The notes beneath the pieces were generated by a model that saw only the letters and a program-made list of their open reading frames with translations, made no database searches and was not told the DNA's origin. A program made the translations under genes and the position numbers. From a virus: a DNA stretch of 24,568 bases. Shown in pieces: positions 1,693-18,413 of this stretch (its first letter is position 1; each line of letters opens with the position of its first letter). The DNA is taken from positions 1 to 24,568 of IMG/VR virus record IMGVR_UViG_3300017967_007296. The stretch is one strand, 5' to 3'.

Positions 1693-2157
1693 ATGTTAAC
1701 AAAACGGATAACTTTTGACGAGATTGAACAAGCATGGAAACAACATCTTTGGCAGGATAGAACAACGCCAATAGAAACACACAGTGTTATGACATGGCCC
1801 TTTGAAGGTAGCCCTCCGGAATATGATATGAGTATTTTTGAGTATACTCCTACCTTTTGGGGTACATACATAGACAACGTTCTTGTGGGTGTTAACAGCG
1901 GTCATCAAACCAGTAAAAATCACTATAGAAGCAGAGGGTTATGGGTACATCCAGAATATAGATTAAAAGGTGTATCGCAAACCTTACTTAATATGACTTG
2001 TTTGGAAGGAACGTTTAGGGGGTGTAATCTAGTATGGACGATGCCAAGAGAAACCGCATTGCCAGCCTATACTAAATTTGGCTTTAAAACAATTGGCGGT
2101 TTCTTTGGCACTGATACTTCAGAATCGAATATATATGCTTTTAAGCGTATTGCTTAG
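1693..2157 (+). CDS. GNAT-family N-acetyltransferase
   Basis: The 154-residue product has the GNAT acetyl-CoA-binding core: 'RGLWVHPEYRLKGVSQTLL' is motif A (beta4-alpha3, with a relaxed pyrophosphate loop), and 'ALPAYTKFGFKTIGG' is the beta5/alpha4 motif B. The enzyme should transfer an acetyl group from acetyl-CoA to an amine; the substrate cannot be told. The frame is open back to 1600, but the ATG at 1693 starts right where GNAT-like sequence begins, and the upstream part overlaps the divergent gene's start. No Shine-Dalgarno sequence is visible, and a late-box-like ACTAAATA ends 5 bases upstream, so the transcript may be nearly leaderless. It overlaps the convergent peroxiredoxin gene by 4 bases. 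In this context it could modify an amino sugar or a host protein (inference). Confidence 0.8.
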   Translation: MLTKRITFDEIEQAWKQHLWQDRTTPIETHSVMTWPFEGSPPEYDMSIFEYTPTFWGTYIDNVLVGVNSGHQTSKNHYRSRGLWVHPEYRLKGVSQTLLNMTCLEGTFRGCNLVWTMPRETALPAYTKFGFKTIGGFFGTDTSESNIYAFKRIA

Positions 2158-2684
2158 TTTTGCGCAACAGTTTTGAGATAGTTCATCATACTGTATGCAT
2201 CTGAAACTTCAAACGGATCAACTGGGCAGTCGTCCATCATGCCAGGCTCAATGAACATAGCTTCAATAGTTCCGTTATTAACTACAGCACTGTATCTCCA
2301 ACTACGCATACCGAACCCTAGGTTATCCTTTTTAACAAGCATGCCTAGCTTTCTAGTAAAGTCTCCTGAACCATCTGGTATAGGTTTAACATTTTGTACT
2401 TCTAAATGATCAAACCATGCATTCATTGTGAAGCTATCGTTTACGCTTAAACAGTAAACTTCGTTGACACCATATGACAAAATCTCATCATAGTTTGCAT
2501 CATATCCAGGTAAATGTGTGCTACTGCATGTGGGTGTAAATGCGCCCGGTAGTGCAATTAGCACTACTCTTTGACCTGCAAAGATATCACTACTAGTAAC
2601 ATCTTTCCATTCAAACCCTGGACTCTCGTCTGTTTGAACTCTGGTCTTAAATGTAACTTCTGGTACTTTTAAATCAAATGACAT
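2154..2684 (-). CDS. Prx5-type peroxiredoxin (redoxin family)
   Basis: The product has 176 residues and should reduce hydrogen peroxide or alkyl hydroperoxides in the cytoplasm. 'PGAFTPTCSSTHLPGY' carries the peroxidatic cysteine C53 and T50 of the PxxxTxxC signature. R130 in 'RSWRYSAVV' matches the conserved active-site arginine. C153 near the C-terminus, followed by 'PFEVSDA', recalls the Prx5 form that uses a glutathione/glutaredoxin system; a resolving role for C153 is uncertain. The ATG at 2684 has a strong Shine-Dalgarno (GAGGA, 7 bases away) and a TATAAATA late box 27 bases upstream. It lies directly after the suf genes, which suggests protection of Fe-S clusters or their assembly from peroxide during infection (inference). 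The family call is firm. Confidence 0.93.
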   Translation of the reverse strand: MSFDLKVPEVTFKTRVQTDESPGFEWKDVTSSDIFAGQRVVLIALPGAFTPTCSSTHLPGYDANYDEILSYGVNEVYCLSVNDSFTMNAWFDHLEVQNVKPIPDGSGDFTRKLGMLVKKDNLGFGMRSWRYSAVVNNGTIEAMFIEPGMMDDCPVDPFEVSDAYSMMNYLKTVAQN

Positions 2685-2711
2685 TGTGTTTTCCTCTGTG
2701 TGTGTCTGGTT

Positions 2712-2719
2712 TATTTATA
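2712..2719 (-). promoter_or_regulatory. T4-type late promoter box, TATAAATA
   Basis: An exact TATAAATA on the minus strand lies in the 40-base gap between the SufT-like gene and the peroxiredoxin gene, 27 bases before the peroxiredoxin ATG. It would let peroxiredoxin be made late independently of the suf genes. Confidence 0.7.
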
Positions 2720-2724
2720 TAGGG

Positions 2725-3045
2725 TTATAATATACCCATGTAATACTTGGCTGCATCTGAAATTTTTTCAGGATTCCATGGCGGGTCAAATGTTAAGTTT
2801 ATACTGACAACACCCACATTTTCAACTTTTTTACAGTAATAGTCTACCATGTCTAATATTTCTTCGCCAAATGGGCAGTTTGGAGCAGTTAATGTCATTA
2901 GCAAATCAACGTCTCCGAATTTATCTACTTCTAATTTGTATATCAACCCGAGATCCACAATGTTGATTCCAATTTCAGGATCAACAACTTTTTCAAGGTT
3001 CTCCATGATTTTATCATTTATTTCAGTCTGTTTATTGCTTTGCAT
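2725..3045 (-). CDS. SufT-like MIP18-family (DUF59) Fe-S assembly factor
   Basis: The product has 106 residues and is a single MIP18/DUF59 domain. It shows 'VVDPEIGINIVDLGLIY' near the N-terminus, 'MTLTAPNCPFGEE' with the conserved cysteine in the middle, and 'LTFDPPWNPEKISDAAK' near the C-terminus, all hallmark blocks of the family. Members such as SufT help Fe-S cluster maturation or delivery to client proteins. The start at 3045 overlaps the sufS stop by 28 bases and lacks a clear Shine-Dalgarno. An in-frame ATG at 3006, just before the conserved domain, is an alternative. As last gene of the suf run it completes a SufB-C-D-S-T order. In some bacteria a DUF59 gene closes the suf operon in the same way (family knowledge). 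Confidence 0.9.
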   Translation of the reverse strand: MQSNKQTEINDKIMENLEKVVDPEIGINIVDLGLIYKLEVDKFGDVDLLMTLTAPNCPFGEEILDMVDYYCKKVENVGVVSINLTFDPPWNPEKISDAAKYYMGIL

Positions 3046-4223
3046 AATTCATCTACAAGTTTTTTACAATCATCTTCTGTGTTATACACACCCCAACTAA
3101 TACGCATCACACCATTATTACTAATTTTTTGTACTAAAGGATGAGCACACAGTTTACCAGTTCTCACAGCAACATTTTTTGTACCTAAAATACTGCCTAC
3201 ATCGCCAGGATGCAATCCATCAAATGTTATTGATAAAATATTTTTAATTATTGTATGATCCTCTACAAAGTCAAGTTGATTACCAGGAATACTAATTCCT
3301 GAAATTGTGTGTAAACCGGCTTGTAATAACCATTTGTAAACTTTATCTATTTTATTACCGATAGTGTTATATCCTGTATAGTTTATCCATTCTGCAGCTA
3401 CGCCCATACCTATCATGCCTGCTATGTTAGGTGTTCCTGCTTCGTGCTTCATTGGGCCTGTATAAAATTCTATGTTACCGTGTAAATTATAACTGTGAAC
3501 TGTGCCGCCTCCATATGTCAGAGGGCGCAAATCATCAAAGCCAGCCCTACTGTATAATACACCGATTCCTGTAGGTCCGTACATTTTATGACCACTGAAT
3601 ACAGCAAAGTCTATGTTAGTATTTTCCACATCGAACCTGTGAGTACCAATAGTTTGACAAGCGTCAATACAAACTACCAACCCGCAACCTTTTGCTACTC
3701 CTGCAAGTAATCTCCATTGTGTAGAAAACCCAGTAACGTTACTAGTGGAAACAATACTTAACAGAGAATTAGGATATTTTTGAAACAGTTTACTGGCGTG
3801 ATCAATGTCTATTTCGCCTTTAAAATCTACAGGCAGAACCTGTAATCTACCGTTGTCTATGGTCCTTCCTTGTATTAACCATGGCAGTATGTTTGCTGTG
3901 TGTTCTGCATCGCTTATAAACACTGTTTCAACATCTTTGAACCACTCAGCAACCATGTTTAATCCAGCAGTAGCACCGTTTGTAAAACATATATTATCGG
4001 ATTTAGTGTTTATTAAATCAGCAATTTGTTCTCTAGCTGTGTCAACTTTATCGCTCACACTACGACTTATTTCGTAATCTCCTCTGTGTATATTGCACCT
4101 TTCGTTTTCGTAATAATTGTTCATTGCAGACAATACACTTTGATGTGTTTGAGTGCTGGCAGCGTTATCAAAATATGCCAGTTCGGGATTGTTTCTCAGC
4201 GTAGGGAATTCTTCTTTGAGCAC
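3018..4223 (-). CDS. sufS: SufS cysteine desulfurase
   Basis: The product has 401 residues, the normal length for a group II cysteine desulfurase. It takes sulfur from L-cysteine with PLP and passes it as persulfide to the SufBCD scaffold. Catalytic features are all present: the PLP lysine K213 in 'FSGHKMYGPTGIG', H108 in 'AEHTANILPW', D187 in 'DACQ', the persulfide cysteine C359 in 'RTGKLCAHPL', and R374 in 'MRISWGVYNT'. Translation starts at a GTG, which overlaps the TAG of sufD by one base (TAGTG) and has AGGAG 7 bases upstream. No sufE or sufU partner gene is in the window, so sulfur relay may be direct or rely on a host protein (inference). The enzyme appears intact and active. Confidence 0.96.
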   Translation of the reverse strand: MLKEEFPTLRNNPELAYFDNAASTQTHQSVLSAMNNYYENERCNIHRGDYEISRSVSDKVDTAREQIADLINTKSDNICFTNGATAGLNMVAEWFKDVETVFISDAEHTANILPWLIQGRTIDNGRLQVLPVDFKGEIDIDHASKLFQKYPNSLLSIVSTSNVTGFSTQWRLLAGVAKGCGLVVCIDACQTIGTHRFDVENTNIDFAVFSGHKMYGPTGIGVLYSRAGFDDLRPLTYGGGTVHSYNLHGNIEFYTGPMKHEAGTPNIAGMIGMGVAAEWINYTGYNTIGNKIDKVYKWLLQAGLHTISGISIPGNQLDFVEDHTIIKNILSITFDGLHPGDVGSILGTKNVAVRTGKLCAHPLVQKISNNGVMRISWGVYNTEDDCKKLVDELCKAINRLK

Positions 4224-5401
4224 TATATTTCTCCTAAAAACGCACTAATAATTAGTTCTTTTGCATCGTCGGGAGATATGCCGCGACTGTTCAGCAAGTA
4301 CATGGCATCTGCATCTACGGTGCTCACAGTACATCCATGACTGCATTTTATTTCTTTGGTTGCAATGTCTAGCCTGGGTTGTGTTATAACTTTTGCGTGT
4401 TTTGTTAGTTGTAAATTTTTATTAACCAAATCAGAGTCAACATGTTGCGCTTGCTTGTCAACTTTAATATTTCCTATAAAATTAAAGCAACCGTGATCGT
4501 TGACAACTGATCTAGCATTCACTCTACTAAAACTGTCTGATCCTTTATGATGTATGTTTATAATTACATCTTCGCTGTTGTGCTCATCGACATAATTTTT
4601 GCATTCTATGTCGGTGTATGTTTGTTGCATGCATTCAACATGGAAATCTTGATGGCAGTATTTGCTGGAAGCATACGATTTATTTGTGTCAATTTCAACG
4701 TGGCTCATAGGATGCTGAATAACTTCACTGCTTATAAATTGATGCGATTGTGTGTGTGAATCTCCTTTCACAATACGGGTAACAAACAGCTTTGCGCCTT
4801 CTCTCACAATGTACACATTTTTATAAAACTTTAACGATGCGTCTGCTTGAAATACTTCTGTTATTTCTATATCAGAGTATGGAGCAATGTCTATGAAGTT
4901 TGTAATACTTTCAAAGTTGCTGGGATCATCGTTCGTTTTGTTAGATACATAAAATATATCGTGATGCTGCTTGGTGTCAGACCTCAAAGAAATACCAGTT
5001 ATGCCAGTACTGGTAGCCATGGCCCAATCGCTTATTTTATCTTTTGTTTTAAAAAAGTTCTCGTACATTTTTGTACGCTTGTTATTTGTGTTAAATGTTT
5101 TGATATTTTGATCGCCCCATAGTCTGCCGTCTCTGTTTACAACTGCACCTTCAGATACAATTATTGCAGGGGTATACATAGTATCTAACTTAGTAGGACG
5201 AGGCCAGGGTTTTGACCAATCAAACGCTTTAACTAGGTTGAAATTTTCTAGTCGTTTTAACTGCGATGTGTTGTACAGTGGGTTGTTAAATATTTCAGTG
5301 TTGATATTGTGATCAAGCGAACTGGTAAAATATTTAAAGTATTTTGGTAAATTTTTAAATGAAATGTCTATTTCATTGTGTTTGGTATTGTTTAAAACCA
5401 T
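4223..5401 (-). CDS. sufD: SufD Fe-S scaffold subunit
   Basis: The product has 392 residues from the ATG at 5401, which has AAGGA 11 bases upstream. A longer frame to 5464 would overlap sufC by 92 bases and is less likely. SufD pairs with SufB and SufC in the SufBC2D scaffold where clusters are built. The C-terminus carries the diagnostic 'KCSHGCTVSTVDADAMYLL' with H355, equivalent to E. coli SufD H360, followed by 'SRGISPDDAKELIISAF'. An 'RDGRLWGDQNI' block is visible near residue 90. The N-terminal half is divergent from cellular SufD as far as I can judge, and the protein is a little shorter than the usual ~420 residues. Its place between sufC and sufS and the single-base overlap with sufS support the call. 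Confidence 0.93.
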   Translation of the reverse strand: MVLNNTKHNEIDISFKNLPKYFKYFTSSLDHNINTEIFNNPLYNTSQLKRLENFNLVKAFDWSKPWPRPTKLDTMYTPAIIVSEGAVVNRDGRLWGDQNIKTFNTNNKRTKMYENFFKTKDKISDWAMATSTGITGISLRSDTKQHHDIFYVSNKTNDDPSNFESITNFIDIAPYSDIEITEVFQADASLKFYKNVYIVREGAKLFVTRIVKGDSHTQSHQFISSEVIQHPMSHVEIDTNKSYASSKYCHQDFHVECMQQTYTDIECKNYVDEHNSEDVIINIHHKGSDSFSRVNARSVVNDHGCFNFIGNIKVDKQAQHVDSDLVNKNLQLTKHAKVITQPRLDIATKEIKCSHGCTVSTVDADAMYLLNSRGISPDDAKELIISAFLGEI

Positions 5402-6101
5402 TTGCACATATATCCTTAACAACTGACGTATCTGTAAACTGTGTTGCAGTGTTGTTTGCAACAACCGATACAGTAGTTGGTTGTAAACTTGTTAGTAATT
5501 TTTCATAATGACTGATTACTATCAAACACTTGTTATTGTTTTTTGTAAAATCTTTTAATGTTTTTATTAGTAAGTTAATAGAATCTATGTCTAATCCGCT
5601 GTCCGGTTCGTCTAGTATTGCAACTGATGGATCAAACATCAACATCTGTATAAGTTCGTTTTTCTTTTTCTCTCCGCCTGATGCATGAACGTTTAAATCT
5701 AACTTGTCCCATCCGTGTGACAAGTTAAAGTCTTTTGCAAGACCTCGAAATGCGTTCAAACTAGTTGCAATGCTTTTAGTAGAGTCTGCCCTCGGTCCTA
5801 TCATATTTTTAATTAATTGAAAGTTACTCAGTCCTTGTATAGGTGTAGGATTTTGAAAACTAAGAAAAATACCTTCCTGTGCTCTAATATGTGTTGGCTC
5901 ATCTGTGATATCTCTGTTATTGTGTAACACTGTGCCCGCTGTGTCGTATAGTGGATTACCCATAATTGCATGTGCAAGTGTGCTTTTACCTGCTCCGTTA
6001 GGGCCCATAATAAAATGTACACCTGTGCCAAACTCTAAATTCACATTATCGAGTATTTTTGTTTGTTCTCTGCTTATAGAAATATTTTCTAATTTTAACA
6101 T
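5373..6101 (-). CDS. sufC: SufC ATPase of the SUF scaffold
   Basis: The 242-residue product is an ABC-type ATPase that drives conformational change in SufBC2D. It has the Walker A at residues 33-41 ('GPNGAGKST'), the SufC-type signature at 141-150 ('SGGEKKKNEL'), Walker B with D-loop at 161-173 ('AILDEPDSGLDID') and the switch histidine H198. The 'EKKKNE' and 'DSGLDID' forms are specific to SufC rather than to transporter ATPases. There are no membrane segments. The ATG at 6101 overlaps the sufB stop by one base (TAATG) and has an AGGAG-type ribosome site inside the end of sufB, so the two are translationally coupled. Confidence 0.96.
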   Translation of the reverse strand: MLKLENISISREQTKILDNVNLEFGTGVHFIMGPNGAGKSTLAHAIMGNPLYDTAGTVLHNNRDITDEPTHIRAQEGIFLSFQNPTPIQGLSNFQLIKNMIGPRADSTKSIATSLNAFRGLAKDFNLSHGWDKLDLNVHASGGEKKKNELIQMLMFDPSVAILDEPDSGLDIDSINLLIKTLKDFTKNNNKCLIVISHYEKLLTSLQPTTVSVVANNTATQFTDTSVVKDICANGFKQYQTQ

Positions 6102-7537
6102 TATCCTACTGCTCCTTCCAGTGTTACACTTAGCAATTTGTTAGCTTCTGCAGCAAACTCCAGCGGTAACTTTTGAAATACATCTTTGCAAAATCCTGTG
6201 ACTATGCAACTTACTGCATCTTCCTCGCTAAGTCCTTTACATTGCAAATAGTACAATGCTTCTTCGCTTAATTTGCCGGTAGTGGCTTCGTGTTCTACAA
6301 TACTGGAGTCGTTTAGTTGTTTTACTGTGGGCAATGTAATTGCAACACTATCGTCAAGCATCAAACTGTCGCACTGCGTATAGTTTCTACTGTTCTCTGC
6401 ATTTTTACTAATTTGTACGAGACCTCTGTATGTATTACTGCTAGATCCACTGCTGATTCCTTTGCTGATAATGGTACTTTTTGTATTCTTACCGCTGTGT
6501 ATCATTTTGGTTCCAGTATCAGCTTGTTGCTTATTTTTAGTTACAGCAACACTATAAAACTCGCCAACACTGCCATCGCCTCTAAGTAAACAAGAGGGGT
6601 ACTTCCAAGTAACAGCAGACCCTGTTTCAACTTGAGTCCAAGTAATTTTTGAATTGTCACCTCTACAATCTCCTCTTTTAGTAACAAAGTTTAGTACGCC
6701 GCCGACTCCATTCTCATCACCTGGATACCAGTTTTGTACTGTGCTATATTTTATTTCTGCACCTTCTAGTGCTATGAGTTCCACAACTGCTGCATGTAAT
6801 GTGTTCTCGCTATATGCAGGAGCAGTGCAACCTTCTAAATAACTTACATAACTTTCATCATCACAAATAATCAATGTACGTTCAAACTGTCCTGTGTTGC
6901 GAGCATTTATACGGAAGTATGTGTTTAGTTCTAGAGGACAGCGCACACCTTTAGGAATATAGCAAAATGTACCGTCTGAAAACACTGCGCTGTTTAATGT
7001 AGCAAAATAGTTATCTTTATAAGATACTACACTTCCCAAATATTGTTTAACCAGCTCTGGATGATTTTGTACTGCTTCACTTATACTGCAAAATATAATG
7101 CCGTGTTTTTTCAATTCATCTTGGAATGTTGTTGCTATACTTACACTATCAAATACTGCATCAACTGCAACAGTGGGAATAACATTATTATCTTTTTCTA
7201 ACCCTAACAGTGCATCTCGCTCGTGCAGCGGCACACCTAATTTATCAAATGTGTCTAGTATTTCTTGAGGTATATCTTCTTTTTTTCTAAACTTTGGTGC
7301 AGAATAATACTTTAATTTTTGATAATCTATTTTGTTATATGTAACATTTGCCCAAGTAGGTTCGGTAAGTTTTTGCAAATGATTATATGCATCAACTCTA
7401 AAGTTTGTCAACCAGTTAGGTTCGTTTTTTATTTGACTGATCTTTCGAACAATATCAATTGATAAACCTGTTTCAAAGTCTTCGTTGTCAATGTCTGTTA
7501 TGAACCCCTCTGGGTATTCATAATTTTGTGTTTGCAT
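6101..7537 (-). CDS. sufB: SufB Fe-S scaffold subunit
   Basis: The product has 478 residues, close to bacterial SufB (about 480-495). SufB receives persulfide sulfur and carries the nascent cluster. 'SYLEGCTAP' (C237) matches E. coli C254, '[12 protein letters not shown]' (C389) matches C405, and '[15 protein letters not shown]' (H416-E417) matches the H433/E434 pair. The C-terminal '[20 protein letters not shown]' is typical of SufB. All residues I know to be needed are kept, so it should be functional. Its start is one base after the clpS stop, with no strong Shine-Dalgarno, so it is probably coupled to clpS translation. It heads the sufBCDS-T order. Confidence 0.96.
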
Positions 7538-7538
7538 A

Positions 7539-7841
7539 TTAAGTAGGTTCTACTATAATTTTTAAGGGATGTCCGTTGTGTCTTGCAATTATTGTTGATT
7601 CTTGTTGTTTTTGTTCTGCAATTTCTTGACCATATACACCTGCAATGCCTTTGCCTTTTTCGTGTATGTTGAGTGTAATTTCTTTAGACTCGTTTATGTT
7701 TTTATTAAAAACTTCTACCAGTAATTGAATTACAAATTCCATGGGCGTAAAGTCGTCATTGAGTAATACAACTTTAAATCTTTCTGGAAATTTAATATCT
7801 GTTCTTGTTCTGGTGCTTGTGTTTGTCTGTTGGTTAGCCAT
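7539..7841 (-). CDS. clpS: ClpS-like adaptor for Clp protease
   Basis: The 100-residue product matches ClpS along its whole folded core: '[20 protein letters not shown]' (N28-D29-D30, M34) and '[20 protein letters not shown]' (H60), then 'HPLKIIVEP'. In E. coli the equivalent Asn/Asp pair and His bind the alpha-amino group of N-degron substrates, and the Met gates the pocket; all are kept here. Residues 1-20 are the usual flexible tail. Host ClpS works with ClpA, which is not in this window; a phage ClpX is encoded 7 kb away. It sits between hsp20 and sufB and its stop nearly touches the sufB start. The ribosome site (TAGGT) is modest. It could redirect the host N-degron pathway during infection (inference). 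Confidence 0.95.
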
Positions 7842-7887: not shown

Positions 7888-8370
7888 TTAAGAAGTAATT
7901 GCAATAAGTTTAGGTTTGGCAGCTTCCGGAATATTCCTCCACAGCCTAACACGCAAAATACCATTTCGCAAACTTGCGCTTTTAACTTCTACATATTCTG
8001 CTAGTTTAAATGTTCTGGTAAAACTACGTTCTGCTATACCTTTGTGTAGGTATTCAACTTCTTCTTCGTCGGTAGCATCAGTATCATTTAAACAGCCGCT
8101 TTTACCTGTAATTTTTAATGACCCGTTTTCAACAACAAGTTCAATGTCCTTTTCGGTAAAGCCAGCAAGTGCTAACACAATTTCATAATCAACTTCTTCT
8201 GTGTCCGTTTTTGTGATTTTATTAATATTAAAGGGCGGATACCCTGATGCTGATGCATTTGTAAATGCTGGGTCAGTTAAAAAATCATCTGCCAGCCTAT
8301 CGAAACCAACACTCATTTTGTAAAGTGGATTAAGTAATTCAGATGTGATGCGATATTGCTTAGTTGTCAT
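7888..8370 (-). CDS. hsp20: Small heat shock protein, IbpA/Hsp20 family
   Basis: The 160-residue product is an alpha-crystallin-type chaperone that holds unfolded proteins. The N-terminus ('SVGFDRLADDF' near residue 20, then 'YPPFNINK') follows the IbpA pattern. The crystallin domain runs from ~45 to 145 ('YEIVLALAGFTEKDIELVVENG', split here by family blocks), with 'ERSFTRTFKLAEYVEV' and 'LRNGILRVRL' as the conserved later strands. A strong ribosome site (AGGAG) precedes the ATG at 8370. Hsp20 is a common gene of marine T4-like phages. Here it leads the clpS-suf operon, with an early-type promoter and a late box in the 134-base leader region. The family call is firm. Confidence 0.95.
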   Translation of the reverse strand: MTTKQYRITSELLNPLYKMSVGFDRLADDFLTDPAFTNASASGYPPFNINKITKTDTEEVDYEIVLALAGFTEKDIELVVENGSLKITGKSGCLNDTDATDEEEVEYLHKGIAERSFTRTFKLAEYVEVKSASLRNGILRVRLWRNIPEAAKPKLIAITS

Positions 8371-10656: not shown

Positions 10657-11934
10657 TCACAAAATGATATTACTGTTTTTTAATTTTAAAATTTCTTCGT
10701 ATAAATGAGGAATATAATTGCTTAACGAGCGATTCCTGAATTTGTCTGACTCTTCGACTAATTTTACTAGTTTTTTTACAAGCCGGGCTTCGGGTTTATT
10801 ATGTTTTTCTAAAAGCCACGCCTTGACTTCCTTGGCCCTCGAAATGGTATTTTCTCTTTGCAGTGTAGATAATTTGTTGTCAATATTTTCAATGCACTTC
10901 TGTTTGTATTCTTCTGAAAGCATTTCTATTGCAGTATAGTCCGGATTAGTCACTCTATTTAAATGTAGATGGTTATGGGTGTACTGATCCCAAAACACCA
11001 TAAGATCGATTACATCATGGGCATTAAATACACTTATCGTAGTGCTACATGAAAACGAATATCTATCGGGCTGTTCCATTGATAGATTTTTTATGCGTTC
11101 TAGATTCTTAGTTGTTTTAGTCCATTTAAATGGATATCTAATATACTCATTAACAGACTGGAAACCGTCTATCGAGACTGTAAGAGAAATACTTTTGAAA
11201 TGTTCCCAAAGTTTAATGTACTCATCTGTTATGTTTGACAAGTTAGTTACCATTTGTAATTGTATATTTGGGGCTCTGCCAGATTCGACTAATTTTGTTA
11301 TAAATTTACGATGTTGATCTGATACAGTAGGCTCTCCTCCGTATATATTGATAAACTTTAAATTAATACACTGGTTTACAATTTCTGTAATTGTTGCATT
11401 GTCTAAGATTAGATTCGTTCCATCACTTTCTGGCTCACCCCAAATTGCAATTTCTTCATCTCGCCATAAACTGCTTGCAGATGATCCGCATGTCATGCAT
11501 TTACTGTTACACACATTGTCAAATCCAATTTCTATATGAGAAACGTTTTCGGGCTGTATGTATTCGTTTTGGGTATTTAAATATGGGGGGATATCTCCGT
11601 TGTGCATCATCCTAAGATTAGTGTGCTCACCATTCCATCCCCGTCGCATGGAAAGGAATCCTTTTTCCTCTGCAACTTTGCAATGTGAGCATGGAAGCGG
11701 CCATTCATTTTGTGTTAATTTTCTTCTTATATCTACTAATTGTTCATTGTTAATAGCATCAACTAACGATATTTTGCTTGGCCTATCTGCGTGTTCCCAA
11801 AAGTTTGTGTCTATTCCGCAACACGGCATACAATCTGATTTGTTAGCGTTGATATTGAATCCATTGTATGCTAGGTAGCAGTAATTGGAATCTTTAAATT
11901 CGTCTTCTATAGATAGATCTTCTGAGTTATCCAC
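10657..11934 (-). CDS. Radical SAM protein with extra N-terminal cysteine cluster (twitch/SPASM-like)
   Basis: The product has 425 residues. The radical SAM [4Fe-4S] site is C142-x3-C146-x2-C149 in 'DNVCNSKCMTCGSS', followed by the SAM-binding 'YGGEPT' (198-203). An N-terminal group of cysteines (C35, C38, C39, C82, C85) precedes the barrel and recalls 'twitch domain-containing' radical SAM proteins found in phages and cyanobacteria. These may hold a second cluster. The chemistry and substrate are unknown. Translation starts at a GTG with GAGGA 7 bases upstream and overlaps the upstream gene by 8 bases. As an Fe-S enzyme it is a natural client of the phage SUF system (inference). Confidence 0.88.
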   Translation of the reverse strand: MDNSEDLSIEDEFKDSNYCYLAYNGFNINANKSDCMPCCGIDTNFWEHADRPSKISLVDAINNEQLVDIRRKLTQNEWPLPCSHCKVAEEKGFLSMRRGWNGEHTNLRMMHNGDIPPYLNTQNEYIQPENVSHIEIGFDNVCNSKCMTCGSSASSLWRDEEIAIWGEPESDGTNLILDNATITEIVNQCINLKFINIYGGEPTVSDQHRKFITKLVESGRAPNIQLQMVTNLSNITDEYIKLWEHFKSISLTVSIDGFQSVNEYIRYPFKWTKTTKNLERIKNLSMEQPDRYSFSCSTTISVFNAHDVIDLMVFWDQYTHNHLHLNRVTNPDYTAIEMLSEEYKQKCIENIDNKLSTLQRENTISRAKEVKAWLLEKHNKPEARLVKKLVKLVEESDKFRNRSLSNYIPHLYEEILKLKNSNIIL

Positions 11935-12430: not shown

Positions 12431-12871
12431 TCAACAACTTACAAAATCACGCAACATTTTTCGTATTTCTATTGCGTGTTGTTCTTCCATGCCAATTTGA
12501 CCCCTAGCATATTCTTCTAACATCACACTGCAATCAGCTACTTCGTTTAACAATTTCTTGTATAACGAAATAGCATGCTCTTCGTGTTTTAAACTTTCTT
12601 GCAATATTTGTTTTATGGAATGATCGTGGCTTTCTTCTATGGTAGCTATTTTTTGACTTGGGTGTCCGTTAAAACCTGTGATTAACTCGCCTGCTTGCAG
12701 AGCATGTGCTAAACTTTCGTTTGCTTGTTCTTGTAAAAATTGCACAATAGGCAAACGGTAAGGGCCAGATACCATCAGCGAACTGTGGGCGTATCTTACA
12801 ACGCCTGCCATTTCGTATTCTACAATTTGGTTAAGTATATCGTTGACTGCTGGGATATTAAGTTCATCCAT
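12431..12871 (-). CDS. Ferritin-like / bacterioferritin-type diiron protein
   Basis: The 146-residue product fits a four-helix ferritin-like bundle. Candidate diiron ligands are E20 (in 'EYEMAGVVRYAH', 7 residues before Y27 as in bacterioferritin), E52 with H56 ('NESLAHALQAGELI'), E97 ('LKHEEHAISLY') and an E129-xx-H132 pair ('GMEEQHAIEI'). It resembles the proteobacterial ferritin-like proteins annotated as bacterioferritin. Likely roles are iron oxidation and storage or protection from peroxide; cage formation cannot be judged. The ATG has AAAGGA upstream. It lies one base from the SGNH gene stop, so they are co-transcribed. With SUF and peroxiredoxin nearby it points to iron handling by the phage (inference). 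Confidence 0.88.
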   Translation of the reverse strand: MDELNIPAVNDILNQIVEYEMAGVVRYAHSSLMVSGPYRLPIVQFLQEQANESLAHALQAGELITGFNGHPSQKIATIEESHDHSIKQILQESLKHEEHAISLYKKLLNEVADCSVMLEEYARGQIGMEEQHAIEIRKMLRDFVSC

Positions 12872-12872
12872 T

Positions 12873-13646
12873 TTATTTTTCCTTTAGTATTTTTTGTTGT
12901 ATATGATCAGCAAGTAAACTTGCAATCAGCATGTGCCCTTTTGTACTTAAATGTGCAGAGTCCCATCCTTCGCTTTGATGCTGATCTCCTAAATCAGTGT
13001 CTTGCCCTTTCCCCCGTTTTACTATCCCTATTTCACTGAAGATATTATCTAAACAATCTGCAGGAAAATATTTTTGATGTGCTTCTTTTTTATAAAATTG
13101 TTCTAGTGTTAACCGGCAAACAAACGGGACATATATTACATTGTGCTTTTCGCATAGAGCTTGTATCATGTGTATCGATGTAATAAATTTATGATTGTTA
13201 AGATTGTCGTCGATACATCCATAGTCTTCGTATGCTCTGTGCAGTTTATCGTTTCCATTTACTTCCTGCCATTGCCAACTATGTACTTTGAAATCTGAAC
13301 TGTAGGCTTCTCCCCATGGAGTATTGTGAACTTCTACTTGTCCTGGCAGTGTAGAGTCCCACTCAAAATCTCGTTCTGGGTGCAATGTATTTTGTTCTGT
13401 TAGTGGATAACTGCCTAGCATATTGCGAGCTGTGTCTGTGTATTGTTGAATAACAATATCGCCTGCTGTTAAATTACCTGAAACAATATTACTAGCAATC
13501 TTGTAAAATGCTCGGTTGTTGCCTGAGCAACCTCTTGCAAGATGCAGATATTGATATCCAAGCATTTCTGCTAGATAGTCGCCGTATGATTTAGGTACTC
13601 GCGTTCTGTCTGAATAACTACAGCCTGCAACAGCAATAGTGGTCAT
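12873..13646 (-). CDS. SGNH/GDSL hydrolase-like protein
   Basis: The 257-residue product has the ordered SGNH blocks. 'VAGCSYSDR' near residue 6 matches block I with S10 as candidate nucleophile, 'GCSGNNRAFYK' near 39 matches the oxyanion Gly/Asn blocks, and 'DSAHLSTKGHMLIA' near 234 supplies the catalytic Asp-x-x-His. The 'GCSYS' form is a variant of GDSL seen in phage and marine genomes. Such enzymes remove acyl groups from glycans or lipids; the substrate is unknown. The ATG at 13646 overlaps the upstream gene's stop by one base (TGATG); a TTG codon at 13649 is also in frame but less likely. Its neighbour is the nucleotidyltransferase-cupin gene, which suggests glycan work. Confidence 0.75.
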   Translation of the reverse strand: MTTIAVAGCSYSDRTRVPKSYGDYLAEMLGYQYLHLARGCSGNNRAFYKIASNIVSGNLTAGDIVIQQYTDTARNMLGSYPLTEQNTLHPERDFEWDSTLPGQVEVHNTPWGEAYSSDFKVHSWQWQEVNGNDKLHRAYEDYGCIDDNLNNHKFITSIHMIQALCEKHNVIYVPFVCRLTLEQFYKKEAHQKYFPADCLDNIFSEIGIVKRGKGQDTDLGDQHQSEGWDSAHLSTKGHMLIASLLADHIQQKILKEK

Positions 13647-14434
13647 CAATCTTCTCCGTACATCTCTAGGCGTTCAATATCTTCTTCGTTAGTTTCATCA
13701 CCGTATTGTATTTCAATGATATGACAAGGTTTGCTGGTAGTGTTGTATGCTTGGTGCCATTGTCCTGCTTTAACAGTAAAAATTTGATCACAATCAAGTT
13801 CAACTATGGAGTACTGATCGGGCTGGTTGGTGTACTGCCCGAACTTAATCGAGCAGGACCCTTTACTTACAAACCAAATTTCATCACGCTTGAAGTGACG
13901 TTGGTAACTAATACCTTTGCCCGGCTCAATAATAAGTTCCTTGACCTTTACTACATCGTCTTGGAACAAATTACTGAACTCTCCCCATACACGTTTTTCA
14001 TTTGGGTACTGCCATTGCTTGAGGATCCAACTAGAACTATTCTTTTTGTTTTCGCCTCCTACCCCAAACATAAATTCTATGTTGGGGTCGTCTACATCCA
14101 TTTCGGGAATATTATCTTTTGTTCTGTCACCTCCGTTGCAAAAGATAATTTTATTAGTTGCGCTTGGAAAGCGTTTCCTAATTTGGATGATAGCATCTTT
14201 AGATGAGTTATCTGAGTCATTGAATTTGATAACTTCAGTAACACAATTCATTTCTTGTAATACTGCTTTGCGTTCTTCAAAAGGCATGAATGACGCACCT
14301 TTCTTACGGGCAAGCCATTCGTCTGAATTAAGTCCTACAACAAGTATTGTACCATGTTTAGCGGCTGATTTAAGATATGCTATGTGCCCAGAGTGAAGCG
14401 GGTCAAATCCGCCGGTAACTATAGAAATGTTCAC
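13646..14434 (-). CDS. Fusion of RfaE/TagD-like cytidylyltransferase and mannose-6-P isomerase-type cupin
   Basis: The product has 262 residues in two domains. Residues 1-~135 are a nucleotidyltransferase with 'GGFDPLHSGHIAYL' (the HxGH motif at 14-17) and 'VVGLNSDEWLARKKG', close to the HldE/RfaE2 type that makes nucleotide-activated sugars. Residues ~145-262 are a cupin like the C-terminal domain of type II mannose-6-phosphate isomerases ('RVWGEFSNLF', 'GKGISYQRHFKRDEIWFV', 'HQAYN', 'HIIEIQYG', 'EEDIERLEMYG'). The fusion would both activate and isomerise or bind a sugar. Translation starts at GTG with AAAGG 7 bases upstream, 2 bases after the bS21 stop. It may help decorate phage or host surface glycans (inference). 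Confidence 0.85.
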   Translation of the reverse strand: MNISIVTGGFDPLHSGHIAYLKSAAKHGTILVVGLNSDEWLARKKGASFMPFEERKAVLQEMNCVTEVIKFNDSDNSSKDAIIQIRKRFPSATNKIIFCNGGDRTKDNIPEMDVDDPNIEFMFGVGGENKKNSSSWILKQWQYPNEKRVWGEFSNLFQDDVVKVKELIIEPGKGISYQRHFKRDEIWFVSKGSCSIKFGQYTNQPDQYSIVELDCDQIFTVKAGQWHQAYNTTSKPCHIIEIQYGDETNEEDIERLEMYGED

Positions 14435-14436
14435 AG

Positions 14437-14844
14437 TTAACCTTTCTTACGGTTTTTAATTTTTTCAATTAATGTAACATGTTTTCTACGTTTACGTTTA
14501 GATTTTAACCAACTGGAATCTGCTTGCAAACTATCCACCCAGTTGCCTTGATTACGACTAGTATCTACTTTTCTGCGCCAACGACTTTTCGCAACATCTC
14601 TTGCACGTTTGCGTTTAACACTAGGTTTTTCATAATATTCGTGTTTGGCTAGATCTTTCTGTCTATTATCGTTCTCTAGCACTTTTTTAAGTTTTTTTAG
14701 TGCTTGATTGACGTCATCGTTCCATACTTCTATTTTGGTACCCGACAATCTATTATCTGTGTGGTCTTTATAGCTGTTTTTATAATGTTTCTTTGGATCG
14801 TTATAATTATTTTTTACTTTGTTATTCCAATTCGATGTTTTCAT
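14437..14844 (-). CDS. rpsU: Phage ribosomal protein bS21 with N- and C-terminal extensions
   Basis: Residues ~37-92 match bacterial bS21: 'KIEVWNDDVNQALKKLKK', then 'HEYYEKPSVKRKRARDVAK' and 'RWRRK'. bS21 sits on the 30S platform near the anti-Shine-Dalgarno helix and aids initiation. The protein has 135 residues, about twice the usual length. It has a polar ~36-residue N-terminal tail and a basic ~42-residue C-terminal tail ('SKRKRRKHVTLIEKIKNRKK'). bS21 genes are known from marine phages, including pelagiphages, and such proteins may replace the host copy and bias translation (family knowledge). The ribosome site AGAGGT is 5 bases from the ATG. It overlaps clpX by 23 bases. The role of the tails is unknown. 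Confidence 0.88.
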   Translation of the reverse strand: MKTSNWNNKVKNNYNDPKKHYKNSYKDHTDNRLSGTKIEVWNDDVNQALKKLKKVLENDNRQKDLAKHEYYEKPSVKRKRARDVAKSRWRRKVDTSRNQGNWVDSLQADSSWLKSKRKRRKHVTLIEKIKNRKKG

Positions 14845-16102
14845 TTATACCTCTAAAAAATGTGTAGTCTGTTAGTGTTTCTCGTCTTTCGTCATCGTAA
14901 ACGAGAATAGGTTTTATAGAGCTACTAGGATAATTATCAAACACTATCTTAGTTACTCCTTTTTCCTGGAGATCCGGCGCATTATACATTATATAGAACA
15001 GAGAGTTCTCAACAATATTTTTCAAGCCGCGGGCACCAATTTCAAGTGACACAGCCTTACTTGCGACTTGTGATACGTATTCTTCGCCAAACTCTATTTC
15101 GATGCTGTTGTACTCTAATAATTCTTGCATTTGCTCTAGCACGTTGTTTTTTACGCTGGTTAATACATATTTCATCTGTTCGGTGGAAAGTTTATTTAGG
15201 TTGCTTATTATTGGGATCCTGCCTACTAATTCAGGTATCAATCCATATTTTACAAGATCTTCTGACTCTAATTTGTTTAGCAAATCTTCTCTGTCTACTT
15301 TAGTAATAACAGTACTATTGAATCCTATACTAGAATTTTTTAACACACGCTTACTTATAACATCTTCTATCCCCACAAATGCTCCGCCTAATACAAATAG
15401 CACATTAGTTGTATCAAAATCAACGTATTCGTCGTTGAATTTTTTACCCGATGATATTTTTACTTTTGTTACTGTTCCTTCTATTAATCTTAGTAGTGCT
15501 TGTTGCACACCTTCGCCGCTTACATCTCTTGTGGTAGTTGAGCTCTCACTTTTTCTACTTTTTTTATCAATTTCGTCTATGTACACTATGCCTTTTTGTG
15601 CTAGATCAACATCATAATCTGCTATACTTAATAGTCTTTCGAGTACAGATTCAACATCATCGCCCACGTATCCTGCTTCTGTTAGTGTAGTAGCGTCTGC
15701 TACAGCAAATGGTACATTTAATTTTTTGGCAAGTGTTTTAGCAAATAATGTTTTGCCTGACCCTGTAGGTCCAACTATTACTATATTACTTTTTTCTATA
15801 GTGACCGCTTTATTTTTGCTGTTTATTCTTTTATAGTGATTATAGGCGCAGGTACTAAGTATTTGTTTTGTTTCTTGTTGGCCTATGATGTATTCATCTA
15901 AAAAACTATGAATTTCTTTTGGACTAGGGAGTACGCTGTTTCCTTCCTCTAGTATGTTTTCGTTTACTTCTGCTTCTAGTATTTCATAACTGATTGTTAT
16001 ACATTCGTTGCAAATATATACACCAGGACCTGCTATTAGTTTTTCAACATTGTCTCTGCTTTTGCCACAAAAACTACAATTAAGAGATTGTTCTGTTGTC
16101 AT
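14822..16102 (-). CDS. clpX: ClpX AAA+ unfoldase, full length
   Basis: The product has 426 residues, the same size as host ClpX. It has the N-terminal zinc-binding domain (C9, C12, C31, C34), Walker A 'GPTGSGKT' near 110, the pore loop 'GYVGDD', Walker B 'IVYIDEIDK' near 175, and the sensor-2 'EIGARGLK' near 370. The ClpP-docking loop keeps the IGF tripeptide ('SSIGFNS'). The RKH substrate loop of E. coli ClpX appears as 'SSGKKFND', so substrate choice may differ. No clpP is in the window, so it would have to use host ClpP or act alone as an unfoldase. The start overlaps the upstream gene's stop by 4 bases (ATGA). All ATPase motifs look intact. Confidence 0.96.
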   Translation of the reverse strand: MTTEQSLNCSFCGKSRDNVEKLIAGPGVYICNECITISYEILEAEVNENILEEGNSVLPSPKEIHSFLDEYIIGQQETKQILSTCAYNHYKRINSKNKAVTIEKSNIVIVGPTGSGKTLFAKTLAKKLNVPFAVADATTLTEAGYVGDDVESVLERLLSIADYDVDLAQKGIVYIDEIDKKSRKSESSTTTRDVSGEGVQQALLRLIEGTVTKVKISSGKKFNDEYVDFDTTNVLFVLGGAFVGIEDVISKRVLKNSSIGFNSTVITKVDREDLLNKLESEDLVKYGLIPELVGRIPIISNLNKLSTEQMKYVLTSVKNNVLEQMQELLEYNSIEIEFGEEYVSQVASKAVSLEIGARGLKNIVENSLFYIMYNAPDLQEKGVTKIVFDNYPSSSIKPILVYDDERRETLTDYTFFRGINENIELE

Positions 16103-16512
16103 TTTTTACCTATATACCTTTTAGTTGTGTCTGTAGTTATGCTGTCTTTAGGTAACGGTACTGCCCAAAAACCCATCCTTTTTTTAACTTCGTCTTCAGA
16201 AAATTTTTCTAACGCTTTTTCTATTTCTTCTACTGACAAGTCTTCTTTATTAAATTCACTGTTTACTAACAGTTTAGCAACAGAGTTAAAATTATTAGTA
16301 TTACTATTACTTACCTGTTTCTCTACTTCTACTTCTACTATTTTTTCTACAGTTTGAGGTTTGCTATTCAACTGATTTTGTAATTCTAAAATTGTTTTTT
16401 TAAGTTGCGCATTGTCCTCTAACAACAGATATGCGGCTTGCAATTTTTTAAGTGCAAGGAGATACTTTGCATTTAACTTATTAAATGCTTGCTGTATTTC
16501 ATCACGATTCAT
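16099..16512 (-). CDS. Coiled-coil protein of unknown function
   Basis: The 137-residue product has no named domain. Residues ~1-60 form a predicted coiled coil ('KLQAAYLLLEDNAQLKKTIL'), followed by 'VEKIVEVEVEKQV', which closely resembles a 'VEKEKIVEVEKKE' segment in the membrane protein two genes upstream. Its first 20 residues ('DEIQQAFNKLNAKY') resemble the start of the upstream neighbour ('EEIQKALDELWSKY'), so the two seem to be diverged duplicates. A second helical part covers ~80-115. There is no signal peptide. It overlaps clpX by 4 bases and the gene upstream by 11 bases, so it is tightly coupled to both. Confidence 0.75.
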   Translation of the reverse strand: MNRDEIQQAFNKLNAKYLLALKKLQAAYLLLEDNAQLKKTILELQNQLNSKPQTVEKIVEVEVEKQVSNSNTNNFNSVAKLLVNSEFNKEDLSVEEIEKALEKFSEDEVKKRMGFWAVPLPKDSITTDTTKRYIGKK

Positions 16513-16735
16513 TCGCTTGTCTGTTTAGTACAGTTTGTTCCAGCTGTGCAATAGCTGCTGGTGTAGACAGATCTAATTGTATATCTTCCCCTGCTTGCAC
16601 TGCTTGTTCTAATTCTGCAATTCTTTGATCTTTGACATCCATTTTATCAATAGCATCTGATAGTAACGACAATGTGTTACCGTATTTAGACCAAAGTTCA
16701 TCAAGTGCTTTTTGGATTTCTTCTTTACTTGCCAT
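16502..16735 (-). CDS. Small coiled-coil protein, paralogue-like to its downstream neighbour
   Basis: The 77-residue product is almost all helix, with heptad-like 'MDVKDQRIAELEQAV' in the middle. Its N-terminus ('EEIQKALDELWSKY') resembles that of the next gene, and its C-terminal 'TPAAIAQLEQTVLNRQ' resembles the last residues of the upstream membrane protein ('PPAIAELEKRLQEKLN'). It therefore looks like a link in a set of proteins that share short pairing segments. It overlaps both neighbours by 11 bases. No function is known. It may bind the other two through coiled coils (inference). Confidence 0.75.
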   Translation of the reverse strand: MASKEEIQKALDELWSKYGNTLSLLSDAIDKMDVKDQRIAELEQAVQAGEDIQLDLSTPAAIAQLEQTVLNRQANES

Positions 16736-18413
16736 TTAATTTCTCCTGCAGACGTTTTTCTAATTCTGCTATTGCTGGCGGAACACTAAAAGAAAAGTCT
16801 TCTTTCTTTTCCACTTCAACTATTTTTTCTTTTTCTACTACAACTTCTTTAGGTTTTTTTGCTAGTTCTTTTTGCAGTTTTTTTAGTTCTGCTTCTAGTC
16901 TTTTTTTTTCAGCAGTGTCTACACCATTAGATCTATCTTTCTTGGAACGCTTTTTACTAGTTGTCCCTTGTTGTTGTAAAAGTGATCTATCTCTAGCATT
17001 TGGTTGTTCCTCAGTTTCCGTTGCGTTGTTTTCTGTGTCAACTGTTGTTCCTTCGACTCCTTCATATTCTCCTGAGTCTGATTGGTTGTTTGTTTTGTGT
17101 GTATCGGTAGCGGATACTCCATCCGGGTTTGTATTGTTGACATCGTTTTTACCTTCCTCATCATCGGGTCCTGCTTTTTCTAAATTTATACCGTATCTTA
17201 ACAGTGTTTGGTTAGCAGCTATAACAAGCATAACAGCTAATGGGTCAAACACAAATACTAACATTAAAATAAACAGTGTAACTGCTTTGTCTAAATAGTC
17301 TGTGCTATCGGCACCGTATATAAGTTGGGCCACATATTTAATAGGTCCAACTTCAGTTTCTAAACTTCTCACTGCACTTTGTGCTTCAAACAGTTGATCT
17401 CTTAAATTACTTATCTGATCATAATAACCATCGATCTCTGTTTGTAGCAATCTTACTCGTTCTTCTCTTTCTTCTACGTTATCGTTAGATTGATTACGTA
17501 GATTGTTAATTTCTCTGTTAGCATCCTGCACAGTTTGCTCTGCTTGACTGCGATAGCGGTCAATGTTTGCTTGTTGTGCAGAAATATTGTTGTTTGCTTG
17601 AGTTCTTAATCTTTCTTTATTATCAGCGGCATCCTGTTGAAACTGTCTTTGCTCATTAGCAATCTGCTCACGCTCCGCACGTTGTTGTTCACGCACTTCG
17701 TTACCACGAGCAACATTATCAACCGTTTCTGTTTCAGCAGCTCTAAACACACCACCTGCTCTAGTCTCTGTTGTAGTAGTACCTTGGGTTGTATAACTTT
17801 CAACAATATCATCCAGTGCAGCAAGTCTCTCGTTGCCTATTAATAAATTACGTTCCAACTGAGCATCTATAGCTGCTAACTCTTGTGTTAACTGCTGACG
17901 TATATTATTAATCTGTTCTTGTGCGTAATCGATATCGCCTTGTACACGATCGTATGCACTATCTCTGATAGTTTCTTGCTGACGAATACTTTCACTAACA
18001 TCACTACTATCGCCGGATCGTAATTGTGCTATTCTATCTTCAGCAATTTCGATATTGTTTTCTTGTCTTTCGATCAGTCCTGATACACGCTCAACTTGCG
18101 CAAGAGCATCACCGCTTACAGCACTTTGATCTAAATGTGCCTTACTCAGATAACCAAAAATGCCCATGCTAGTAATAAGCATGAGTACACCTACAGCAAC
18201 ACACAAATATGATTTGAGAATAATACTAGTGTCATTCCAATAGCGATACAGCCAACTGGCTGTAAGCAGTTTGCCTACTTCTAATGACCCAGCCATAATA
18301 GCAATAGGTGTGGCACTAGCACTAAAGATTGCTATTAATCCTGCAATGCTAAACCATGCTGCTACCCCTGCAATCGTAAGGGCTGTTAATAAAGTTAGTA
18401 TTCCGAAAAACAT
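16725..18413 (-). CDS. Large membrane protein with long periplasm- or cytoplasm-facing coiled coil
   Basis: The 562-residue product starts with about three membrane segments (roughly 2-23, 24-47, 68-89). A long coiled coil follows at ~95-355, very rich in Q, E, R, N and A, then a fourth membrane segment ('AVTLFILMLVFVFDPLAVML', ~380-400). The tail (~405-562) is disordered and charged, then lysine/glutamate helical with 'VEKEKIVEVEKKEDF' and 'PPAIAELEKRL'. I do not know a characterised homologue, but this kind of membrane protein appears in marine T4-like phages. The ATG has no Shine-Dalgarno; a GATAAATA late box ends 5 bases before it. A role in the host inner membrane, such as superinfection control or lysis timing, is conceivable but unproven. 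Confidence 0.8.
   Translation of the reverse strand: MFFGILTLLTALTIAGVAAWFSIAGLIAIFSASATPIAIMAGSLEVGKLLTASWLYRYWNDTSIILKSYLCVAVGVLMLITSMGIFGYLSKAHLDQSAVSGDALAQVERVSGLIERQENNIEIAEDRIAQLRSGDSSDVSESIRQQETIRDSAYDRVQGDIDYAQEQINNIRQQLTQELAAIDAQLERNLLIGNERLAALDDIVESYTTQGTTTTETRAGGVFRAAETETVDNVARGNEVREQQRAEREQIANEQRQFQQDAADNKERLRTQANNNISAQQANIDRYRSQAEQTVQDANREINNLRNQSNDNVEEREERVRLLQTEIDGYYDQISNLRDQLFEAQSAVRSLETEVGPIKYVAQLIYGADSTDYLDKAVTLFILMLVFVFDPLAVMLVIAANQTLLRYGINLEKAGPDDEEGKNDVNNTNPDGVSATDTHKTNNQSDSGEYEGVEGTTVDTENNATETEEQPNARDRSLLQQQGTTSKKRSKKDRSNGVDTAEKKRLEAELKKLQKELAKKPKEVVVEKEKIVEVEKKEDFSFSVPPAIAELEKRLQEKLNGK

What the first reader, a model, noticed from the sequence alone, without database searches (positions are those of the whole stretch)
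14822..16102. Full-length phage ClpX with intact ClpP-docking IGF loop but altered RKH loop, plus a phage ClpS
The unfoldase keeps the zinc domain, both Walker motifs, the GYVG pore loop and IGF, so it could plug into host ClpP. The E. coli RKH loop, which helps recognise ssrA-type tags, reads GKKF, hinting at different substrates. With phage ClpS in the same window, the phage seems set to reprogram host ClpP proteolysis from both the ClpX and ClpA sides.
Basis: partly seen in the sequence, partly recalled or inferred. Interest (0 to 1): 0.72.

Follow-up and report, generated by a model that had tools for sequence, protein, structure and literature searches.

The report
Phage ClpX missing its ssrA-recognition loop
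A fragment of a giant bacterial virus carries an intact protein-unfolding motor (ClpX) and a helper (ClpS); its relatives also carry the matching protein-shredding chamber (ClpP), so the virus probably runs its own degradation machine instead of borrowing the host's, with a motor that has lost the loop bacteria use to spot their standard 'destroy me' tag.

Summary
Window 14822-16102(-) encodes a full ClpX: zinc domain, Walker A/B, GYVG pore loop and IGF loop intact; E. coli GRKHP reads GKKF (R228K, H230F, P231 lost). A ClpS lies at 7539-7841(-). The GKKF change is not a private quirk: RKH is gone throughout one well-supported clade of phage ClpX (35 of 81 viral sequences) but kept in 79 of 80 nearest bacterial ClpX and in most other phage ClpX; the IGF-type loop is kept by all 81. 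The 'hijack host ClpP' reading is only partly supported. The window is a 24.6-kb fragment ending 14.8 kb downstream of clpX. In relatives with RKH-less ClpX, a catalytically intact ClpP with most of the ClpX-docking pocket lies 18-45 kb downstream; all 9 contigs reaching 35 kb or more have it, and at least six records also have a ClpA. Six contigs carrying the window's last gene show clpP 10-16 kb beyond it. So the phage most likely brings its own ClpXP/ClpAPS, with ClpX moved away from ssrA tags. Phage ClpX/ClpS/ClpA/ClpP sets are already published (Atu_ph07); the clade-wide RKH loss with matching ClpP looks new. The window also carries a SUF iron-sulphur operon.

The parts
14822..16102 (-). 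clpX, full-length AAA+ unfoldase (426 aa); zinc domain, Walker A/B, GYVG, IGF intact; RKH loop replaced by GKKF
7539..7841 (-). clpS, N-degron adaptor (100 aa); NDDFTPM and His66 kept, Met62 replaced by Thr
7888..8370 (-). Hsp20 small heat-shock protein, next to clpS in nearly all related contigs and in cultured phages Callisto (Pseudomonas) and, one gene apart, Phosso
14437..14844 (-). bS21-like ribosomal protein (135 aa), overlapping the 3' end of clpX; follows clpX in most relatives
16099..16512 (-). small coiled-coil protein, overlaps clpX start by 4 bp; conserved C-terminal stretch (..KKRMGFWAVPLPKD..TTKRYIGKK); fused to the membrane protein below in L028/L029, and that stretch also ends the fused protein of L010
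16502..16735 (-). small ORF between the two, found in a subset of relatives
16725..18413 (-). membrane plus coiled-coil protein (562 aa), upstream of clpX in nearly all related contigs and in Salicola phage SCTP-2; no Pfam or PHROG match

Best explanation
The gene encodes a working ClpX of a huge tailed-phage lineage that brings its own Clp protease. ClpX forms the usual ATP-driven hexamer (shown by sequence and fold only), docks through IGF on a ClpP encoded by the same phage about 18-45 kb downstream, beyond the end of this fragment (shown in relatives, inferred here), and feeds it substrates. Loss of the RKH loop weakens reading of host ssrA tags, so the phage ClpXP is kept for other substrates, probably phage-specific degrons or adaptors, and is not swamped by ssrA-tagged proteins made as host mRNA decays (inferred). 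ClpS would deliver N-degron proteins to a phage ClpA (present in several relatives) and/or host ClpA. Hsp20 and bS21 belong to the same conserved gene block.
For: Intact ClpX motifs and fold. [I/M/V]GF loop kept in all 81 viral ClpX examined. RKH-less sequences with the window form one clade: 24 rows SH-aLRT 100, 28 rows 96, tree built without the RKH columns. RKH kept in 79 of 80 nearest bacterial ClpX. Canonical ClpP with S97-H122-D171 and mostly hydrophobic docking positions in RKH-less records; 9 of 9 records reaching 35 kb or more downstream have it. The gene just beyond clpP in this lineage (alignment A1) is found in 5 records, all with clpP beside it, and in none without. Six contigs with a homologue of the window's last minus-strand gene (502-1638) have clpP 10-16 kb further on, same strand. 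ClpA N-domain hits in 6 RKH-less records; one read in full is a 732-aa ClpA with its own IGF loop. RKH residue roles: PMC7652416.
Against: No clpP or clpA is in the window itself. Contigs G085 and G084, close by SufB, show no clpP within 20 and 17 kb after the shared gene, so position varies or it could be absent. R228K is conservative and four other ssrA-contacting residues (Y153, V154, T199, V202) are kept, so ssrA recognition may be only weakened. No substrate, adaptor or expression evidence. The host, and so host ClpP, is unknown.
Confidence: 0.66

Rival explanations
1. Host hijack as first proposed: the phage ClpX and ClpS plug into host ClpP and ClpA and redirect them to new substrates; no phage ClpP is involved.
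For: IGF loop intact; clpP not in the window; ClpS is published as a likely route to host ClpAP in some jumbo phages (PMC7824862).
Against: All 9 clade contigs with enough downstream sequence carry a phage ClpP; ClpA present in several. The absence here is explained by truncation.
Confidence: 0.14
2. Mixed use: phage ClpX works with both phage and host ClpP, giving extra general proteolytic capacity during infection; RKH change is drift with little effect.
For: Docking residues of phage ClpP resemble bacterial ones, so cross-docking is plausible; R228K is conservative; RKH replacement sequences vary within the clade (KKF, KKY, KRL, KKS, NTK), as expected from relaxed constraint.
Against: Loss is clade-wide while the rest of the motor is strongly conserved, and RKH is kept in most other phage and nearly all near bacterial ClpX.
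Confidence: 0.14
3. ClpP-independent remodelling: ClpX acts as an unfoldase in virion assembly or replication complexes (as bacterial ClpX does on Mu transposase; own knowledge).
For: PMC7824862 suggests virion-assembly or translocase roles for phage ClpX; clpX sits beside topoisomerase genes in Atu_ph07 and SCTP-2.
Against: If ClpP were not used, the IGF loop should decay; it is kept in 81 of 81, with ClpP in the same genomes.
Confidence: 0.06

Closest known systems
Agrobacterium phage Atu_ph07 Clp set (ClpX gp2, ClpA gp292, ClpP gp676, ClpS gp708, ClpB; PMC6102473)
   Same: A jumbo phage encoding ClpX, ClpA, ClpP and ClpS together
   Different: ClpX only 43% identical to the window's, outside the RKH-less clade, loop reads GGRKNP; followed by IF-3 rather than bS21
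Pseudomonas phage Callisto / PA5oct group (Wroclawvirus)
   Same: Order clpX ... hsp20 - clpS on one strand; RKH also lost; joins the same clade at 96% SH-aLRT
   Different: 43% identity, very long branch, so placement is unsure; no bS21 annotated in the gap
Sinorhizobium phage Phosso
   Same: clpX, bS21, small heat-shock protein and clpS in this order within 18 kb
   Different: 47% identity; loop GGRKNP; ClpX groups with Atu_ph07
Bacillus phage G gp257-gp258
   Same: Phage-borne ClpP-like and ClpX
   Different: The genes are adjacent; ClpX keeps RKH and groups among bacterial (Bacillota) ClpX
E. coli ClpX (PDB 8e91, 6wrf, 3hte)
   Same: Same architecture, motor, pore and IGF loops; Z about 35
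   Different: R228K, H230F, P231 deleted
Human mitochondrial ClpX
   Same: Also a ClpX that departs from E. [quoted passage not shown]
   Different: Human also changes pore-2 T199 to Leu; the phage keeps Thr

Membership tests
ClpX (NCBIfam NF003745 / TIGR00382) | Whole-protein score above curated cut-off | tested here: met
   511.3 vs 359 and 489.4 vs 370.75 bits
ClpX (NCBIfam NF003745 / TIGR00382) | N-terminal C4 zinc domain | tested here: met
   PF06689 E=5.8e-18; C-X2-C-X18-C-X2-C
ClpX (NCBIfam NF003745 / TIGR00382) | Walker A/B, sensor 2, pore-1 GYVG | tested here: met
ClpX (NCBIfam NF003745 / TIGR00382) | IGF-type ClpP-docking loop | tested here: met
   SSIGFNS, aligned with E. coli IGFGATV
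ClpX (NCBIfam NF003745 / TIGR00382) | RKH loop (common, not defining: human ClpX departs from it) | tested here: not met
   GKKF
ClpX (NCBIfam NF003745 / TIGR00382) | Physical docking to ClpP and ATP-dependent unfolding | not testable with these tools
   needs biochemistry; complexes could not be predicted
ClpS adaptor | Pfam ClpS domain above cut-off | tested here: met
   94.5 vs 23 bits
ClpS adaptor | NCBIfam equivalog cut-offs (naming thresholds for bacterial ClpS, not defining features of the fold) | tested here: not met
   best 98.5 vs 112 bits; divergent member
ClpS adaptor | N-degron pocket: Asp35, Asp36, His66 | tested here: met
   NDD and H66 kept; Met62 is Thr, as in 14 of 14 ClpS from RKH-less records
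Self-contained phage Clp protease (as annotated in Atu_ph07) | Catalytic ClpP in the same genome | tested here: inconclusive
   absent from the 24.6-kb fragment; present in 9 of 9 clade contigs with at least 35 kb downstream
Self-contained phage Clp protease (as annotated in Atu_ph07) | ClpA in the same genome (partner of ClpS) | tested here: inconclusive
   not in the fragment; Clp_N hits in 6 RKH-less relatives

The most novel reading that the evidence does not exclude
This huge-phage lineage runs an insulated ('orthogonal') ClpXP: a ClpX blind to host ssrA tags, paired with its own ClpP, reading a phage-specific degron or adaptor. The membrane-anchored coiled-coil genes fixed just upstream of clpX (16099-18413) would be candidates for such an adaptor or tether.
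Probability: 0.27. Interest if true: 0.7.

Novelty: new variant of a known kind. Interest (0 to 1): 0.46.

Why it matters
Phage takeover of proteolysis is usually discussed as adaptors or inhibitors acting on host Clp. Here a whole viral lineage seems to carry ClpX, ClpP, often ClpA, plus ClpS, and its ClpX has lost the loop bacteria use to recognise ssrA tags. That gives a clean, testable case of a protease that may be separated from the host's tagging system, and a natural set of ClpX variants for studying degron choice. It also corrects an inference trap: 'no clpP in this window' came from a short contig.

Tried and rejected
(1) Phage tmRNA that could supply a matching tag: RF00023 scan of 36 records gave no hit at the gathering score; sub-threshold hits (35.7 bits or less against 47) looked like short tRNA-like or fragmentary matches. 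(2) Recent capture of host clpX: rejected; nearest bacterial ClpX is about 55% identical (Staphylococcus and relatives) against 67% for the nearest phage contig, so the top bacterial hits give no host. (3) Divergent PF00574 hits (E about 1e-35) in RKH-keeping phages were not counted as ClpP: poor docking residues, likely prohead-protease-like. (4) 'Phage' records with staphylococcal, Listeria or Enterococcus clpX/suf are unannotated for the most part, look like host DNA contamination, and were ignored; Microcystis phage MaAM05 suf lies beside panB/panC and also looks bacterial. (5) A first ClpP script used the wrong aspartate column; corrected. (6) Paper searches for a phage-encoded ClpX study, a phage SUF operon, and ClpS Met62 found nothing in the open-access library; absence there is not proof. 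(7) ClpX-ClpP complex prediction was not possible: only single chains can be folded. (8) A viral-contig scan with the clpP-neighbour alignment A1 gave only 5 loci, so bridging contigs were sought with the window's last gene instead.

Full report
WHAT IS THERE. The ORF at 14822-16102 lies on the minus strand and encodes a 426-aa protein. It is a ClpX by every sequence test run: NCBIfam equivalog NF003745 511 bits against a cut-off of 359, E. coli ClpX in the PDB at E=2e-126, PF06689 zinc finger and AAA_2. An AlphaFold2 model (24-sequence alignment, mean pLDDT 79.7, pTM 0.71) aligns with ClpX crystal chains at Z about 35 and 2.0 A over 313 residues. The zinc domain, Walker A and B, GYVG, pore-2 TRDVSGEG, SSIGFNS, the arginine finger and sensor 2 all read through intact. 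ClpS is at 7539-7841(-), with Hsp20 beside it at 7888-8370(-), and a bS21-like protein overlaps the end of clpX.

THE RKH LOOP. E. coli GGRKHPQQEF aligns with SGKKF-NDEY: R228 becomes K, H230 becomes F, P231 is missing. In E. [quoted passage not shown] R228A also shifts preference toward an N-degron substrate; [quoted passage not shown] The phage protein keeps Y153, V154, T199 and V202, so the likely effect is weaker rather than certainly absent ssrA recognition. I collected 80 related viral ClpX. All 81 sequences keep an [I/M/V]GF loop; 45 keep RKH, one has RRH, and 35 including the window lack it. Of the 80 bacterial ClpX nearest to the query, 79 keep RKH (this sample is biased to near relatives). 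A tree made without the RKH columns puts the window with 23 other RKH-less phage sequences (SH-aLRT 100), or 27 others including Callisto (96; Callisto is a long branch). SCTP-2, Atu_ph07 and Phosso also lack RKH but fall outside this clade. So RKH loss is an old trait of this lineage, not a quirk of one contig.

PHAGE CLPP. The window is itself a whole IMG/VR record, a 24,568-bp linear fragment, with no PF00574 hit. Its relatives do have clpP. Among 80 records with a related ClpX, 15 carry a canonical ClpP (E at or below about 1e-66), and 9 of 21 SUF-bearing records tested do so too (two more records in that call came from another search). The ClpPs examined keep the Ser-His-Asp triad. The docking positions Y60, Y62, I90, M92, F112, L114 and L189 of E. 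coli are mostly conserved in character (for example NYIMFLI), though position 60 is often Ser or Asn and position 112 is Lys in some. In the RKH-less clade clpP lies 17.8-44.7 kb downstream of clpX on the same strand in all 11 records that show both; all 9 records with at least 35 kb of downstream sequence have it, and none of those lacking it reaches that far (a few of these contigs are near-duplicates). The window ends 14.8 kb downstream of clpX. The gene just beyond clpP (alignment A1) occurs in five of 35 clade records, each time with clpP beside it, and never in a record without clpP. Finally, contigs holding a homologue of the window's last minus-strand gene (502-1638) bridge the gap: in G082, G104, G108, G109, G110 and G114 clpP follows 10-16 kb later on the same strand, in G105 and G008 about 30 kb later, and in G107 it lies on the other side. 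It is not seen in G085 (20 kb reach), G084 (17 kb), G118 (24 kb, distant) or G004 (that gene inverted). I put the chance that this virus encodes clpP at about 0.88.

CLPA AND CLPS. Clp_N hits in ORFs of about 740 aa occur in RKH-less records G017, G088, G092, G094, G097 and G103. The one read in full, L101:15722-17920, is 732 aa, scores best as ClpA (TIGR02639, 801 bits, below that model's cut-off of 993) and has its own IGF tripeptide (KRIGFGD). Thus ClpS has a possible phage partner. The window ClpS keeps NDD and His66 but has Thr for Met62, as do all 14 ClpS from RKH-less records examined; residue numbering and pocket roles of ClpS are from my own knowledge.

GENE BLOCK. The order membrane/coiled-coil protein - clpX - (bS21) - Hsp20 - ClpS is conserved across most of the 80 contigs and is recognisable in cultured phages: Callisto (clpX, hsp20, clpS), Phosso (clpX, S21, hsp20, clpS), Salicola SCTP-2 (membrane protein, clpX, clpS). 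Large terminase genes in contigs such as G088 (340 kb, with RKH-less ClpX, ClpP, a ClpA-like ORF and SufB) confirm that these are tailed phages.

MECHANISM. Shown: intact motor, docking loop, RKH loss across a clade, and ClpP and ClpA in relatives. Inferred: that this virus also has ClpP; that its ClpX prefers its own ClpP; that ssrA reading is weakened; and that the benefit is a protease kept free for phage-chosen substrates while ssrA-tagged proteins pile up as host mRNA decays. The last step is speculation with no direct evidence.

KNOWN AND NEW. Phage ClpX, ClpA, ClpP and ClpS are published for Atu_ph07 (PMC6102473) and discussed for jumbo phages in general (PMC7824862). I found no paper on RKH loss in phage ClpX, but only an open-access library was searched. 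I rate this a new variant of a known kind.

Noticed in passing
window 2154-7537 (-): SUF iron-sulphur cluster operon in phage DNA: SufB (6101-7537), SufC (5373-6101), SufD (4223-5464), SufS-like cysteine desulfurase (3018-4223, Cys in GKLCAHP), SufT/MIP18-like (2725-3045), then a peroxiredoxin. SufB found in 45 viral contigs at 60-81% identity, including contigs of 217-340 kb, some with a terminase; no paper on phage SUF found. Perhaps more novel than the ClpX finding.
   Followed up: partly
window 14437-14844 (-): Phage bS21 ribosomal protein, elongated (135 aa; S21 domain at about 39-90), directly after clpX in most relatives.
   Followed up: partly
window 16099-18413 (-): Membrane plus coiled-coil protein and a small partner with a conserved C-terminal stretch (GFWA.PLP), almost always upstream of clpX; fused into one protein in L010, L028 and L029. 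No Pfam match for the membrane protein, no PHROG match for either.
   Followed up: partly
window 7539-7841 (-): ClpS Met62 to Thr in all 14 RKH-less records; might alter N-degron choice.
   Followed up: partly
L106, L105, L117: Conserved block around phage clpP in this lineage; genes nearby in one or more of these loci include an IMPDH/GMP reductase-domain protein, an NAD synthase, a protein matching part of DNA pol III alpha and (L105) an A-type Fe-S carrier.
   Followed up: partly
L085, L086, L097, L101, L345 (ClpP): E. coli ClpP docking residue Phe112 is Lys in several clade ClpPs; possible co-change with the phage ClpX IGF loop.
   Followed up: no
window 12431-12871, 13646-14434, 10657-11934 (-): Ferritin-like protein (74-81% identical in relatives), a cytidylyltransferase-cupin fusion, and a radical SAM protein.
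   Followed up: no
phages collection, hits H1-H5, H78-H97: Many 'Staphylococcus/Listeria/Enterococcus phage' records, mostly without annotation, hold bacterial clpX or suf genes, apparently host contamination; Microcystis phage MaAM05 (MW495066) also looks bacterial around suf.
   Followed up: partly
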